The translations under genes and the position numbers were made by a program. Under the pieces are notes generated by a model. The model had not been told where the DNA came from. It did no database searches and saw nothing but the letters and a program-made list of their open reading frames with translations. DNA of 64,000 nucleotides from Agromyces sp. Leaf222 (GTDB taxonomy: Bacteria; Actinomycetota; Actinomycetes; Actinomycetales; Microbacteriaceae), in the NCBI RefSeq assembly GCF_001421565.1, contig NZ_LMKQ01000004.1, positions 182,821 through 246,820 of the forward strand. Reading direction: 5' to 3'. Shown here one piece after another: positions 84 to 62,307 of this stretch. The stretch's first letter is position 1; each line of letters starts with the position of its first letter.

Positions 84-1796
84 ATGAACACGACCCCGAC
101 CATGACCCTCGAGCGCGAGCGAGCGGATGCCGCATCCGCACGTCGCCCCGAACCGAAGCCCGCGACCGGCAGCTTCCAGACCGTCGAGCCCCGCCTCGAG
201 GTCGCGCCGGCCGGCGCGACCGGCGGCGAGCTCGTCGCCCGCTACGGCGAGATCCTCACGCCGGAGGCGCTCGCGTTCCTCGCCGCGCTGCACGATCGGT
301 TCGCCGGAACGCGTCACGAGCTGCTCGCCGAGCGCCTGCAGACCCGCGTCGATGCCGCGAACGGACGCGACCCGCGCTTCATGCCCGAGACGGCATGGAT
401 CCGCGACGACTCGGCATGGCGCGTCGCGGGCCCCGGCCCCGGCCTCGAGGACCGTCGTGTCGAGATCACCGGCCCGACCGATCGCAAGATGGCGATCAAC
501 GCGTTGAACTCGGGCGCGAAGGTCTGGCTCGCCGACCAGGAGGATGCCACGAGCCCCACCTGGACGAACGTCATCGAGGGCCAGCTGACCCTGTTCGACT
601 TCCTGCGCGGCGACCTCGAGTACACGAGCCCCGAGGGCAAGGCGTACCGGGTCACGGCCGAGCAGACCCCGACGATCGTGATGCGCCCGCGCGGCTGGCA
701 CCTCGTCGAGAAGCACCTGACGTTCCACGACCGGGCGGGGCGCGCCATGGCCGCGTCGGGGTCGCTCGTGGACTTCGGGCTGTACTTCTTCCACAACGCG
801 CAGGCGCTCATCGCGGCCGGTCGCGGGCCGTACTTCTACCTGCCGAAGCTCGAGTCGCACCGCGAGGCGAAGCTCTGGAACGACATCTTCGTCTTCGCGC
901 AGCGCGAGCTCGGCATCCCGCAGGGCACGATCCGCGCGACCGTGCTCATCGAGACGATCCAGGCCGCGTTCCAGATGGACGAGATCCTCTACGAGCTGCG
1001 CGAGCACTGCGCGGGCCTCAACGCCGGCCGCTGGGACTACATCTTCTCGATCGTGAAAACGTTCCGCTCGCGCGGCCGCCGCTGGGTCTTCCCCGACCGC
1101 AAGGCGATCACCATGACGGTGCCGTTCATGCGGGCCTACACCGAACTGCTCGTGCAGACGTGCCACAAGCGCGGGGCACATGCGATCGGCGGCATGAGCG
1201 CGTTCATCCCGAACCGCCGCGACCCCGAGGTCACCGAGCGGGCACTCGCCGCCGTGACGGCCGACAAGCGGCGTGAGGCCGGCGACGGCTTCGACGGCAC
1301 CTGGGTCGCGCACCCCGACCTGATCCCCACCGCCCGTGCGGAGTTCGACGCCGTGCTCGGCGACCGGCCGAACCAGGTCGACCGCCTGCGCGACGACGTC
1401 GAGGTGACGGCAGCCGACCTGCTCGACATCCCCTCGATCGGCGGAGAGGTGACCGAGGCCGGCGTGCGCGACAACGTCTCGATCGCCATCCGCTACATCG
1501 AGTCGTGGCTGCGCGGCACGGGTGCCGCGGCCATCGACAACCTCATGGAGGATGCCGCGACGGCAGAGATCTCGCGCTCGCAGATCTGGCAGTGGCTCGA
1601 CAACAACACCGTCACCGCCGAGGGCACGCGCATCGACCAGACGTCGATCGTGCGCCTCATGGCCGAGGCCGTCGCGGCCCTGCCGCGGTTCGAGGGCGAC
1701 CGGTTCGACGACGCGATCTCGGTGTTCCGCACCGTGGCGCTCGAGCCCGAGTTCCCGACGTTCCTCACGGTGGGGGCGTACGCCAGGTTCCTCTGA
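84..1796 (+). CDS. aceB: Malate synthase A
   Basis: This enzyme condenses glyoxylate with acetyl-CoA to give malate, the second step of the glyoxylate shunt. The 570-residue length fits the A isoform. Residues that match the family: MRPRGWH at 200-206 (substrate arginine), E290 and D318 (Mg ligands, with the same 28-residue spacing as in the E. coli enzyme) and D490 in MEDAATAEIS, exactly 200 residues after E290, the catalytic base. The N-terminal 30 residues are low-complexity and probably variable. The ATG is preceded by AAGGAGA at a good distance. Isocitrate lyase is not in the window, so it may lie to the left or elsewhere. The long antisense frame over this gene is a GC artefact. Confidence 0.97.
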   Translation: MNTTPTMTLERERADAASARRPEPKPATGSFQTVEPRLEVAPAGATGGELVARYGEILTPEALAFLAALHDRFAGTRHELLAERLQTRVDAANGRDPRFMPETAWIRDDSAWRVAGPGPGLEDRRVEITGPTDRKMAINALNSGAKVWLADQEDATSPTWTNVIEGQLTLFDFLRGDLEYTSPEGKAYRVTAEQTPTIVMRPRGWHLVEKHLTFHDRAGRAMAASGSLVDFGLYFFHNAQALIAAGRGPYFYLPKLESHREAKLWNDIFVFAQRELGIPQGTIRATVLIETIQAAFQMDEILYELREHCAGLNAGRWDYIFSIVKTFRSRGRRWVFPDRKAITMTVPFMRAYTELLVQTCHKRGAHAIGGMSAFIPNRRDPEVTERALAAVTADKRREAGDGFDGTWVAHPDLIPTARAEFDAVLGDRPNQVDRLRDDVEVTAADLLDIPSIGGEVTEAGVRDNVSIAIRYIESWLRGTGAAAIDNLMEDAATAEISRSQIWQWLDNNTVTAEGTRIDQTSIVRLMAEAVAALPRFEGDRFDDAISVFRTVALEPEFPTFLTVGAYARFL

Positions 1797-1997
1797 CACC
1801 GGCAGCCCGAGTCTCGATGGGCCGCGTCGACCGCATCCGGCGATCCCGGAAGGTGCAACGGTCGGCGCGGCCCTCTCTCGGCACCGGTCAGGGGGCGGGT
1901 TCAGTCGGGTTCCGGCCGTGTCGCAACCGGCTGTTATGCTGACGCCCGCTCAGACCGCGGTAGCGTCGGCTACTCGTCCCCACACCCCTGGAGTCCC

Positions 1998-2510
1998 ATG
2001 CCATCGCTGCGTTCCACCGCCTTCGCCCCCGCAGTCCTCGCGGTCCTCCTCCTGTCGGGTTGCGCCGCCGGGGCGACGACGGCGGCCGAGACCGGCGAGC
2101 CCGCGCCGAAGCCGACCGAGGCGGCCGAGGCGCCGGCGACCGCGCCGGCGGAGGGCGCGACCGAGCAGAGCGTCGAGGAGGCGTGCGCGTTGCTCGCGAC
2201 GGGGGTGCAGCCCTTCGTGGAGATGTCGTCCGACGGCCAGGACGCGACGGCGAAGGCGGCGCAGGATCCGCAGGGAACGATCGCCAAGATCCGGGGCGTC
2301 GCCGACACGTTCTCGGCGAGCGTGGATCAGGTGACGAACCCCGAGGTCCTACCGGTCGCCACCACCGCGAGTGCCGCACTGGACTCGTACGCCGATGCCC
2401 TCGACGCGATCATCGCCGACCCGCTCAACGCGGATGTCGCGGGGGTGGCGCAGGAGCAGGCGCAGTCCATCGGCCAGGCCTTCTCGGCGATCGGCGACGT
2501 CTGCAGCTGA
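1998..2510 (+). CDS. Small secreted lipoprotein of unknown function
   Basis: The 170-residue product has a lipoprotein signal peptide: a short basic start, a hydrophobic stretch and the lipobox LLSGC, so the mature protein should begin at Cys22 and be lipid-anchored outside the membrane. An Ala/Pro/Glu/Thr-rich linker (about residues 25-55) leads to a mostly helical domain of about 110 residues with two cysteines (in EEACALL and the C-terminal GDVCS) that could form a disulfide. I do not recognise a catalytic motif. It stands alone, about 200 bp after aceB. Confidence is high that it is a real lipoprotein gene and low for any function. Confidence 0.8.
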   Translation: MPSLRSTAFAPAVLAVLLLSGCAAGATTAAETGEPAPKPTEAAEAPATAPAEGATEQSVEEACALLATGVQPFVEMSSDGQDATAKAAQDPQGTIAKIRGVADTFSASVDQVTNPEVLPVATTASAALDSYADALDAIIADPLNADVAGVAQEQAQSIGQAFSAIGDVCS

Positions 2511-60776: not shown

Positions 60777-62279
60777 ATGCGATCAACGGGCGACGGGGCT
60801 GCGAACGACGAGATCGAGTCGAGCGACCACTCGCTGGCTCCGGCGGCCGAGGCGTACACGTCGGCTGAGGCATCCGCTCACGAGACATCCGCCCACGAGA
60901 CATCCGCTCACGAGGCCCACTCGCGTCTGCCCGAAGCGAAGGGCCCGCTCTCGGCGCCGTACACCTGGCTCTCGATCGGCATGTTCGCGACGATCTTCCT
61001 CGCGGCGTTCGAGGCCATGGCGGTGACGACGATCATGCCGCTCGTGGTGCGCGACCTCGACGGCGAGTCGCTGTTCGCCCTCGCGTTCGCGGTTCCGCTG
61101 GCCGCCGGCATCATCGGCATGGTGCTCGCGGGCAACTGGACCGACCGCTCGGGCCCGCTGCCCTCGCTCATCACCGCGGCGGCGCTGTTCGTCGTCGGCC
61201 TCGTGATCGCGGGCACCGCGACCGACATGACCGTCTTCATCATCGGGCGCTTCGTGCACGGCCTGAGCGGCGCGGCCGTCATCGTGCCGCTCTACGTGAT
61301 CGTCGCGCGGGCGTACCCCGAGTCGTTGCGCGCCCGCGTGTTCGCCGGGTTCGCCGCGGCCTGGGTGATCCCGTCGATCGTCGGGCCGGCGCTCGCCGGC
61401 GTCGTCGCCGAGACCTTCAGCTGGCACTGGGTGTTCCTCGGCGTCATCGTGATCGTCGTGCCGGCGGCGGCCATGATGGTGCCGCCGATCCTGCGGGTCC
61501 GCGATCTCGTGCAGGGCGACGCCTCGGTGCCGTGGAGCCTCGGGCGCGTCGGCTGGGCCACGCTCACGGCCGTCGCCGCGCTGGCGGTCTCGCTCGCCAA
61601 GGAGCTCGACGACCCCTGGCGGTGGCTCGCCGCCGGCCTCGGCATCGCGGTCGCAGCGTATGCCGCCCGCCCGCTGCTGCCGCCCGGCGCACTGCATGCC
61701 GCACGCGGCATGCCGGCCACGGTCGCGGTCAAGTTCGTCGTGGCCGGAGCGTTCTTCGGCAGCGAGGTCTACCTGCCGTACCTCTTCATCGAGAACTACG
61801 AGATGTCGCCGAGCCTCGCGGGCGTCGTGCTCACGGGCGCTGGCGTCACGTGGGCGGCGGCGTCGTGGCTGCAGGGGCGGCTCACCCACCGGGTCAGCGA
61901 CACCCTGGCGGTGCAGATCGGCGCGCTCACGCTCGTGGTGGCCCTCGTCGTCGTGCTCGCGGTGGCCGCGTTCACCCTGCCGCCCGCGATCGCGTTCGTC
62001 GCCTGGGCGCTGGCCGGGGCGTCGATGGGGTTCATGTACCCGAGGTTCTCGGTGTCGGTGCTCGCGCAGTCCAAGCGCGACGAGCAGGGCTTCAACAGCG
62101 CTGCGCTCACGATCTCGGAGTCGCTCGGCGCGTCGATCGCGCTCGCGGTCACGGCGCTCGTGTCCTCGGCCGTCGGCGCCGGCGCGTTCACCGCCGACTT
62201 CGCCGTCACCCTCGGCATCGCGGTCGTCGGCCTGCTCATCGCGGGTCGCGTGCGTCCGCTGGGCGTCGCCCGCGGCTGA
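60777..62279 (+). CDS. MFS efflux transporter with acidic/His N-terminal repeats
   Basis: The 500-residue transporter has 12-14 helices: FLAAFEAMAVTTIMPLVVRDLDGESLF, LAGNWTDRSGPLPSLI, RFVHGLSGAAVIVPLYVIVARAYPESLRARVFAGF and GPALAGVVAETFSWHWVFL (motif C), like drug antiporters. Before helix 1 is a tail of about 55 residues with three AHETS-type repeats. The ATG at 60777 follows a GTG at 60774; either could be used. Single gene; substrate unknown. Confidence 0.88.
   Translation: MRSTGDGAANDEIESSDHSLAPAAEAYTSAEASAHETSAHETSAHEAHSRLPEAKGPLSAPYTWLSIGMFATIFLAAFEAMAVTTIMPLVVRDLDGESLFALAFAVPLAAGIIGMVLAGNWTDRSGPLPSLITAAALFVVGLVIAGTATDMTVFIIGRFVHGLSGAAVIVPLYVIVARAYPESLRARVFAGFAAAWVIPSIVGPALAGVVAETFSWHWVFLGVIVIVVPAAAMMVPPILRVRDLVQGDASVPWSLGRVGWATLTAVAALAVSLAKELDDPWRWLAAGLGIAVAAYAARPLLPPGALHAARGMPATVAVKFVVAGAFFGSEVYLPYLFIENYEMSPSLAGVVLTGAGVTWAAASWLQGRLTHRVSDTLAVQIGALTLVVALVVVLAVAAFTLPPAIAFVAWALAGASMGFMYPRFSVSVLAQSKRDEQGFNSAALTISESLGASIALAVTALVSSAVGAGAFTADFAVTLGIAVVGLLIAGRVRPLGVARG
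60871..60915 (+). repeat. Three 15-bp tandem repeats inside the MFS gene
   Basis: CATCCGCTCACGAGA, CATCCGCCCACGAGA and CATCCGCTCACGAGG in tandem encode the (S)AHET repeats of the transporter's N-terminal tail. CATCCGC matches the end of the GCGGCATCC motif. Confidence 0.8.
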
Positions 62280-62307
62280 GCAACTCGGGCCCGCGGCATC
62301 CGTCGAC

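What the first reader, a model, noticed from the sequence alone, without database searches (positions are those of the whole stretch)
125..62301. GGATGCCGC is strongly over-represented and forms inverted-pair hairpins, like a DNA-uptake or Chi-type signature
Seen: by hand I count about 47 exact GGATGCCGC/GCGGCATCC copies on both strands (for example 1550, 2634, 8607, 13396, 30027, 44354, 57411), inside genes and between them. A simple base-composition estimate at an assumed 71% GC predicts about two. Inverted pairs form intergenic hairpins at 8606-8623, 16896-16932, 40617-40648, 50888-50921 and 57306-57336, plus a variant at 36628-36668. Known parallel: uptake sequences of Neisseria and Pasteurellaceae are over-represented and often paired as terminators. 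Inference: a DNA-uptake, Chi-like or other genome-wide signal; simple codon bias for Asp-Ala-Ala does not explain the intergenic pairs.
Basis: partly seen in the sequence, partly recalled or inferred. Interest (0 to 1): 0.82.

Follow-up and report, generated by a model that had tools for sequence, protein, structure and literature searches.

The report
Uptake-like DNA watermark in Agromyces genomes
Soil bacteria of the genus Agromyces carry an 11-letter DNA word hundreds to thousands of times across the genome, and related bacteria carry it or other repeated words, which looks like the password some bacteria use to take up mainly their own kind's DNA, though this has not been shown in the laboratory.

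Summary
In detail: 52 exact GGATGCCGC in the window against 3.4 expected; consensus CGGATGCCGCG. The Agromyces genome has 2,259 copies of the 11-mer against 27 letter-reversed controls. All 24 congeners tested carry 126-2,129; 15 genomes of other families 5-36. First-listed genomes of 42 of 85 Microbacteriaceae genera are enriched.

Codon use does not explain it: 289 copies in sampled genes against 16.7 after synonymous shuffling. Copies show no replichore bias, are twice as dense between genes, form oriented hairpins and thin out in low-GC DNA. Other lineages carry different dispersed words.

Best explanation (0.6): a DNA-uptake-sequence-like signal with dialects, serving a ComEA/ComEC/Tad-pilus uptake route whose genes are present. 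Uptake is untested, no receptor is known, ComEC presence does not track the motif, and a site-conservation test was null. RecBCD-Chi is disfavoured: RecC absent from 32 of 32 family genomes. My paper searches listed no such signal in Actinomycetota.

The parts
125..133 (+). motif copy
   Evidence: exact match
1550..1558 (+). motif copy
   Evidence: exact match
2634..2642 (+). motif copy
   Evidence: exact match
3361..3369 (-). motif copy
   Evidence: exact match
4087..4095 (+). motif copy
   Evidence: exact match
5335..5343 (+). motif copy
   Evidence: exact match
5375..5383 (-). motif copy
   Evidence: exact match
6058..6066 (+). motif copy
   Evidence: exact match
6131..6139 (-). motif copy
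   Evidence: exact match
8607..8615 (+). motif copy
   Evidence: exact match
8614..8622 (-). motif copy
   Evidence: exact match
8836..8844 (+). motif copy
   Evidence: exact match
9853..9861 (+). motif copy
   Evidence: exact match
10243..10251 (+). motif copy
   Evidence: exact match
10852..10860 (+). motif copy
   Evidence: exact match
11305..11313 (-). motif copy
   Evidence: exact match
12303..12311 (+). motif copy
   Evidence: exact match
13348..13356 (+). motif copy
   Evidence: exact match
13396..13404 (+). motif copy
   Evidence: exact match
14347..14355 (+). motif copy
   Evidence: exact match
16897..16905 (+). motif copy
   Evidence: exact match
16923..16931 (-). motif copy
   Evidence: exact match
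19337..19345 (-). motif copy
   Evidence: exact match
21304..21312 (+). motif copy
   Evidence: exact match
26306..26314 (+). motif copy
   Evidence: exact match
30027..30035 (-). motif copy
   Evidence: exact match
30292..30300 (+). motif copy
   Evidence: exact match
31828..31836 (+). motif copy
   Evidence: exact match
33329..33337 (+). motif copy
   Evidence: exact match
34452..34460 (+). motif copy
   Evidence: exact match
34459..34467 (-). motif copy
   Evidence: exact match
38207..38215 (+). motif copy
   Evidence: exact match
40618..40626 (+). motif copy
   Evidence: exact match
40639..40647 (-). motif copy
   Evidence: exact match
42532..42540 (+). motif copy
   Evidence: exact match
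43437..43445 (+). motif copy
   Evidence: exact match
44354..44362 (-). motif copy
   Evidence: exact match
44669..44677 (-). motif copy
   Evidence: exact match
45629..45637 (+). motif copy
   Evidence: exact match
46378..46386 (+). motif copy
   Evidence: exact match
46529..46537 (-). motif copy
   Evidence: exact match
47029..47037 (+). motif copy
   Evidence: exact match
50890..50898 (+). motif copy
   Evidence: exact match
50911..50919 (-). motif copy
   Evidence: exact match
56042..56050 (+). motif copy
   Evidence: exact match
56345..56353 (-). motif copy
   Evidence: exact match
57307..57315 (+). motif copy
   Evidence: exact match
57327..57335 (-). motif copy
   Evidence: exact match
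57411..57419 (+). motif copy
   Evidence: exact match
59348..59356 (-). motif copy
   Evidence: exact match
60394..60402 (-). motif copy
   Evidence: exact match
62293..62301 (-). motif copy
   Evidence: exact match
5334..5384 (.). inverted motif pair (hairpin) inside a called gene
8606..8623 (.). overlapping inverted pair, 18-bp palindrome, between called genes
16896..16932 (.). inverted motif pair, long hairpin between called genes
34451..34468 (.). overlapping inverted pair inside a called gene
36628..36668 (.). variant hairpin on GGATGCCCCG between convergent called genes
40617..40648 (.). inverted motif pair, hairpin between called genes
50889..50920 (.). inverted motif pair, hairpin between called genes
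57306..57336 (.). inverted motif pair, hairpin just after a called stop codon

Best explanation
CGGATGCCGCG is most likely a DNA-uptake-sequence-like signal (self-recognition watermark) of Agromyces and many other Microbacteriaceae. Proposed mechanism: a surface or cell-envelope DNA receptor of the competence apparatus (a Tad/Flp pilus component or ComEA; identity unknown) binds the motif on free double-stranded DNA, and ComEC takes that DNA in preferentially. Homologous recombination of motif-bearing fragments then replaces motif-less alleles, so copies accumulate throughout the recombining genome (molecular drive) and are missing from newly acquired DNA. Pairs in opposite orientation are tolerated or recruited as hairpins at gene ends. 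Related lineages carry diverged words (dialects). Shown here: enrichment, consensus, distribution, strand symmetry, hairpins, taxonomic range, other words in relatives, and presence of comEA, comEC and two tad-like loci. Inferred: that DNA uptake is the cause, that the other words are dialects of the same signal, and all receptor and recombination steps.
For: Copy number: 2,259 in 4.43 Mb against 27 controls; neisserial DUS about 1,900 in 2.2-2.3 Mb (PMC3630211 passages). Sharp non-palindromic consensus; one-off 12-mers above expectation. Copies in genes are DNA-driven: GAT-GCC-GCG encodes 160 of 434 Asp-Ala-Ala (expected 11.6), GCG-GCA-TCC 142 of 391 Ala-Ala-Ser (expected 2.2), and 289 genic 11-mers against 16.7 +- 3.0 in 30 synonymous shuffles. 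Density 1.10 per kb between genes against 0.55 within; convergent gaps 1.79, divergent 0.77. Inverted pairs polar: 32 '+-' against 4 '-+'; paired DUS are reported in high numbers in all DUS-dialect genomes (passage). No replichore bias, 125 of 261. Density climbs with local GC from 0.12 to 1.02 per kb; the one empty stretch of 33 fetched is a low-GC region with metal/arsenic-resistance-type genes. Spacing slightly more even than random (0.029 of simulations as even). Family range: 42 of 85 genera enriched. Other words in relatives: GGAGKCGCGGG at 408-918 copies in 6 of 6 genomes of genus g51, controls 31-48; others. comEA-comEC and two tad-like loci present; Micrococcus luteus needs two tad clusters for transformation (PMC4322843 passages), and ComEA/ComEC are called important there too (PMC8467076 passages).
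Against: No evidence of uptake or transformation in Agromyces was found here. No receptor was identified. ComEC is in 78 of 80 family genomes whatever their motif count, so the machinery does not predict the motif. At 16 orthologous window sites the motif was not significantly better conserved than its flanks in ten high-copy species (difference -0.021, bootstrap -0.064 to 0.025). One-off variants are only about as many as perfect sites (128 against 119 for the 12-mer, summed), whereas in Neisseriaceae they are considerably more (PMC3630211 passage). Copy number varies 18-fold within the genus. A mild excess also exists outside the family (Arthrobacter bussei 30 against 5, Rhodococcus 30 against 8). 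Several family genomes gave no clear word (G053, G063, G067, G073). The density-GC trend is partly compositional and its lowest bin holds only four 2-kb windows. The uptake signals in the papers I saw are Gram-negative.
Confidence: 0.6

Rival explanations
1. A genome-wide mark unrelated to uptake, like cyanobacterial HIP1: a binding or methylation site for a nucleoid, repair or modification protein, kept by selection or by biased mutation or repair.
For: Dense, both strands, in genes and between; lineage-specific words; no dependence on ComEC presence.
Against: HIP1 is palindromic (recalled) and this motif is not. An 11-bp asymmetric site is long for a methylase (recalled). Polar hairpin pairs and scarcity in low-GC DNA are not specifically predicted. 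No methylome was available.
Confidence: 0.22
2. A Chi-type recombination hotspot read by a helicase-nuclease of the AddAB/AdnAB type during break repair.
For: Asymmetric, over-represented, lineage-specific, scarce in low-GC DNA.
Against: No orientation bias: 125 of 261 co-leading, interval 0.417-0.541, unlike E. coli Chi (about 75%, recalled). RecC absent from 32 of 32 Microbacteriaceae. Chi does not predict inverted pairs or intergenic excess. AddAB/AdnAB were not searched.
Confidence: 0.12
3. A dispersed terminator or REP-like mobile hairpin whose remnants give the count.
For: Long motif-based hairpins between genes; highest density between convergent genes.
Against: 345 of 450 copies placed wholly in or between genes lie inside genes. 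The flanks carry little information beyond the 11-mer, so no longer element is being copied. REP-like repeats in other genomes look different (G301, G215).
Confidence: 0.04
4. Codon or composition artefact (Asp-Ala-Ala bias at 71% GC).
For: The motif does fall mainly in frames reading Asp-Ala-Ala or Ala-Ala-Ser.
Against: Synonymous shuffles keep only 16.7 of 289 copies; it uses the rare codons GAT (12.8%) and GCA (6.3%); density is higher between genes.
Confidence: 0.01

Closest known systems
DNA uptake sequence (DUS) of Neisseriaceae
   Same: Short non-palindromic word, about 2,000 copies, in genes and as inverted pairs, family-restricted, dialects between relatives (PMC3630211 passages).
   Different: Sequence unrelated; Gram-positive host with Tad-type pilus loci; fewer one-off variants relative to perfect sites; uptake function and receptor (ComP in Neisseria) unshown.
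Uptake signal sequence (USS) of Pasteurellaceae
   Same: Short dispersed word over-represented genome-wide, with two dialects (PMC12616744 passages).
   Different: Sequence unrelated; competence regulation not examined here; uptake unshown.
Chi recombination sites
   Same: Asymmetric, over-represented, lineage-specific word (Chi properties recalled).
   Different: No replication-orientation bias; no RecC in the 32 family genomes searched; inverted pairs and intergenic excess.
HIP1 of cyanobacteria (recalled)
   Same: Very frequent short word of uncertain function, inside genes.
   Different: HIP1 is a palindrome; this is not.

Membership tests
DUS/USS uptake signal | Extreme genome-wide over-representation | tested here: met
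   2,259 against 27 controls; 289 against 16.7 in shuffled genes
DUS/USS uptake signal | Both orientations without replichore bias | tested here: met
   1,113/1,146; 125 of 261 co-leading (22 of 34 sampled stretches, those on C1)
DUS/USS uptake signal | Inverted pairs near gene ends | tested here: met
   32 '+-' against 4 '-+'; 18 of the 32 between called genes. Spaced pairs alone 13 against 4, p 0.05
DUS/USS uptake signal | Scarcity in horizontally acquired DNA | tested here: inconclusive
   GC-bin trend and one empty metal-resistance-type stretch agree, but GC is only a proxy for origin
DUS/USS uptake signal | Dialects in related lineages | tested here: met
   different words confirmed genome-wide: g51 6 of 6, f7 4 of 60 strongly, g26 3 of 6; others only from 20-120 kb samples. 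That they are dialects of one signal is inferred
DUS/USS uptake signal | Competence machinery present | tested here: met
   comEA-comEC, two tad-like loci; but ComEC is also in motif-poor genomes
DUS/USS uptake signal | Site maintained across species above its flanks | tested here: inconclusive
   16 sites, difference not significant
DUS/USS uptake signal | Motif raises DNA binding, uptake or transformation | not testable with these tools
   needs an experiment
DUS/USS uptake signal | Dedicated receptor | not tested
   no receptor candidate was tested
Chi site | Orientation bias with replication | tested here: not met
   125 of 261, interval 0.417-0.541
Chi site | Cognate RecBCD (RecC) | tested here: not met
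   0 of 32 family genomes; 3 of 8 genomes of other families
Chi site | Cognate AddAB/AdnAB response | not tested
   no search made
HIP1-like palindrome | Palindromic word | tested here: not met
   CGGATGCCGCG is asymmetric
REP/terminator element | Mostly intergenic, longer conserved unit | tested here: not met
   345 of 450 copies inside genes (5 more straddle an edge); weak flanks

The most novel reading that the evidence does not exclude
Microbacteriaceae possess a third, independently evolved DNA-uptake-signal system, the first in a Gram-positive phylum, with a radiation of genus-level dialects several of which share a GGA core, read by a yet unknown receptor of the Tad-pilus/ComEA uptake route. 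Analogous words exist in at least one other actinobacterial family.
Probability: 0.5. Interest if true: 0.93.

Novelty: new variant of a known kind. Interest (0 to 1): 0.8.

Why it matters
In the papers seen, self-specific DNA uptake signals are described for Pasteurellaceae and Neisseriaceae. A third origin in Actinomycetota would show that such signals evolve repeatedly. It would give an easy genomic marker for natural transformation in a large family, offer a practical way to make these bacteria genetically tractable (add the word to donor DNA), and allow a fresh test of how dialects and receptors co-evolve.

Tried and rejected
Codon or composition bias: rejected. REP or terminator element: rejected as a full explanation. 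RecBCD-Chi: disfavoured. ComEC presence as predictor of motif count: no, it is near-universal. Orthologous-site conservation: null with 16 sites. Spacing: only slightly more even than random. Rfam: no hit in the window.

De novo scans that gave no convincing word: G053, G063, G067, G073 (80 kb each); G208 (40 kb) and G250 (20 kb); G294 and G146 (40 kb each, weak candidates only); G025, G028, G029, G032, G035 (40 kb each); G089 gave only a 5.7-kb contig. G301 and G215 gave REP-like repeats instead. The G055 word GGCGTGGGCGT was in 3 of 4 stretches and may be a coding repeat; the G056 word GGGGGAGTG was not followed. Low-copy Agromyces G022 gave no separate dialect in 40 kb. A literal search for GGATGCCGC in papers matched 181 papers, of which 20 were listed; seen only as a listing, none looked relevant.

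
Full report
Identity and observation. Cystathionine beta-synthase of the window (54646-56013) is closest to Agromyces proteins at 78-84% identity (18 Agromyces among the 80 best loci kept), so the window is Agromyces or very near it (Microbacteriaceae, Actinomycetota). It is contig C4:182821-246820 of a 4.43-Mb, four-contig genome. 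The window has 33 forward and 19 reverse GGATGCCGC against 3.4 expected under a third-order Markov model over both strands. Genome-wide, CGGATGCCGCG occurs 1,113 + 1,146 times against 11 + 16 for the pattern read backwards.

Consensus. From 518 copies in 724 kb (window plus 33 stretches of 20 kb), C precedes GGATGCCGC in 88% and G follows in 80%; outside that, flanks carry little information. For the 12-mer ACGGATGCCGCG (119 found, 1.2 expected), single changes within the central GGATGC are few (0-9 each), while changes at the tenth and twelfth positions are commoner (7-16 each, 8 to 39 times expectation). Summed over positions 2-12, one-off 12-mers number 128, about as many as perfect ones.

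Not codon bias. In 613 called genes (my own simple gene caller), GAT-GCC-GCG accounts for 160 of 434 Asp-Ala-Ala (11.6 expected) and GCG-GCA-TCC for 142 of 391 Ala-Ala-Ser (2.2 expected), using the rare codons GAT (12.8% of Asp) and GCA (6.3% of Ala). The 11-mer occurs 289 times in genes and 16.7 +- 3.0 times in 30 within-gene synonymous shuffles.

Distribution. Of 455 copies of the 10-mer, 345 are inside genes (0.55 per kb), 105 between (1.10 per kb) and 5 straddle an edge; density is 1.79 per kb between convergent genes, 1.43-1.51 between co-directional ones and 0.77 between divergent ones. Adjacent copies closer than 60 bp number 42 against about 17 expected for random placement; 32 are '+-', 4 '-+', 5 '++', 1 '--'. 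Of the '+-' pairs 19 overlap as the 18-bp palindrome CGGATGCCGCGGCATCCG and 13 are spaced; 18 of the 32 lie between genes. The spaced pairs alone are only marginally polar (13 against 4, p 0.05). The window hairpins fold strongly and, by eye, none has a U-tract. With the best dnaA match at C1:159849 and the terminus assumed between 2.3 and 2.4 Mb on C1, 125 of 261 copies in the 22 sampled C1 stretches are co-oriented with replication (p 0.54); the 12 stretches on other contigs, the window included, were left out. In 2-kb bins density rises with GC: 0.12, 0.31, 0.47, 0.59, 0.80 and 1.02 per kb (the lowest bin holds 4 windows and 1 copy). The trend is partly compositional, though an eight-fold span exceeds my hand estimate of under two-fold from base composition alone. 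Stretch L103 (GC 65.7%) has no copy in 20 kb, the only such stretch of 33; the 7 of its 13 called ORFs that I scanned include an ArsR-type regulator, low-molecular-weight phosphatases, an aquaporin-type channel, oxidoreductases and a P-type-ATPase-like piece, in keeping with an acquired metal/arsenic-resistance region.

Taxonomic range. All 24 other same-genus genomes tested carry 126-2,129 copies; 15 genomes of 15 other families carry 5-36 with controls 3-26. In 299 family genomes 13 have none. Taking the first-listed genome of each of 85 genera, 42 have at least 40 copies and five times control, 33 at least 100; the highest outside Agromyces is 786 (G099), and 13 of 13 genera under 2 Mb have at most 8 (on the counts). 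In the full table the incomplete 1.8-Mb G214 (81 copies) is an exception to the small-genome rule. In 38 genomes reached through 38 of the 80 named loci: A. terreus 1,894, A. salentinus 2,002, A. tardus 2,230, A. mediolanus 344, Herbiconiux 556, Cryobacterium glucosi 365, Microbacterium aurantiacum 336, Leifsonia aquatica 43 (control 13), against Arthrobacter 30 (5) and 23 (12), Goekera 19 (30), Rhodococcus 30 (8) and Actinoplanes 78 (33, in 10.4 Mb). So a mild excess over the reversed control exists outside the family.

Other words. De novo k-mer scans of samples from other genomes gave different dispersed words. Genus g51: GGAG[GT]CGCGGG; genome-wide 408-918 copies in 6 of 6 g51 genomes (controls 31-48), while most of the other 44 genomes are near control (G070 164 against 38 and G094 105 against 53 are higher). 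Family f7: GCCCGAGGCGG, 284 and 323 copies in two genomes against controls of 1 and 0, 137 (43) and 116 (15) in two others, at most 78 in the remaining 56 of 60. Genus g26 (51% GC): CATCGGTGTTG, 65, 39 and 38 copies in three of six genomes (controls 1-2) and 3-6 in the other three. Seen only in samples: GCAGGATCC in g63, CAGGATCGC/CAGGATGCC in g20, CGGATGCGC in g42, GGATGCCC in g23, ACGGATGCGG/CGGATGCGCGA in g37, GGATGC[CG]G in g64, G[TC]GGATCGC in g67. Several share GGAT or GGAG, which resembles the shared core of neisserial dialects, but those from 20-120 kb samples are leads, not established dialects.

Machinery. The genome has comEA (SLBB plus HHH_3) next to a comEC without internal stop and with a metallo-beta-lactamase domain, two loci with a TadA-type ATPase and T2SSF proteins followed by small ORFs in tad-like order, and a lone PilB-like MshEN-T2SSE gene beside what look like rpoC and rpoB. 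The putative Flp and one TadE-like product had no Pfam match. In Micrococcus luteus two tad clusters are required for transformation (PMC4322843, passages only), and ComEA/ComEC are described as important there too (PMC8467076, passages only). ComEC is found in 78 of 80 family genomes (the misses G051 and G077 are fragmented), so it does not discriminate.

Evolution. I aligned 18 Agromyces loci and 13 loci of other genera to 43-64 kb of the window. Sites turn over: in ten high-copy species 24 of 74 site comparisons are perfect, in seven low-copy species 10 of 46 (L017, without a genome count, was left out). In the other genera 0 of 39 comparisons is perfect. Motif divergence is not significantly below flank divergence in either group. 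The sample is small; it neither supports nor refutes selection at individual sites.

Mechanism. The combined pattern is what a biased-uptake system would leave behind, and I commit to that at 0.6. A Chi role is weakened by the lack of orientation bias and of RecC; an unknown HIP1-like role is the strongest rival. Biochemistry, methylation, competence and receptor are all untested.

Literature. Searches for uptake sequences with Microbacteriaceae, with Actinobacteria, with Agromyces and competence terms and for uptake signals in general listed no report of such a signal in Actinomycetota. One search matched 1,579 papers and 860, of which only 20 and 15 were listed, and the library is open-licence PMC only, so absence is not proven. 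One 2023 paper says none had been reported for mycobacteria (PMC10526031, passage). DUS facts come from passages of PMC3630211, USS facts from passages of PMC12616744; PMC12236230 was seen in passages only. E. coli Chi orientation, HIP1 properties and molecular drive are recalled (a title on molecular drive appears in reference lists).

Noticed in passing
window, 18 sites such as 5927, 17781, 49311, 52686: The palindrome ATCGCGAT is about three times as dense in the window (18 in 64 kb) as in the other sampled own stretches (63 in 660 kb); all 8 GATCGCGATC copies in the window lie inside called genes.
   Followed up: partly
L103:7800-17291 (own C1 about 2.4 Mb): Motif-free, low-GC region with ArsR, phosphatase, aquaporin and oxidoreductase genes, like an acquired arsenic/metal resistance region.
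   Followed up: partly
window 38539-40491 (-): One open frame joins a LacI-type regulator (LacI and periplasmic-binding-protein domains) to a C-terminal DUF6807 domain.
   Followed up: no
window 24531-26858 and 26963-29296 (+): Two adjacent large ORFs of nearly equal length (775 and 777 aa); the first matches the IgA peptidase M64 family, the second was not scanned.
   Followed up: no
L159:10151-11821 (-): A lone PilB-like ATPase (MshEN plus T2SSE) sits beside two long ORFs that look like rpoC and rpoB, with no obvious pilus genes next to it.
   Followed up: no
L146-L147 (G301) and L153-L154 (G215): REP-like repeats (CCCTGAGCCTGTCGAAGGG type; GGTCGAGACCAC with CGAGCAGACC) in two other Microbacteriaceae genomes.
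   Followed up: no
L122, L123, L140-L143 (G030, another family): A different dispersed asymmetric word, GCCCGAGGCGG, is strong in 4 of 60 genomes of that family.
   Followed up: partly
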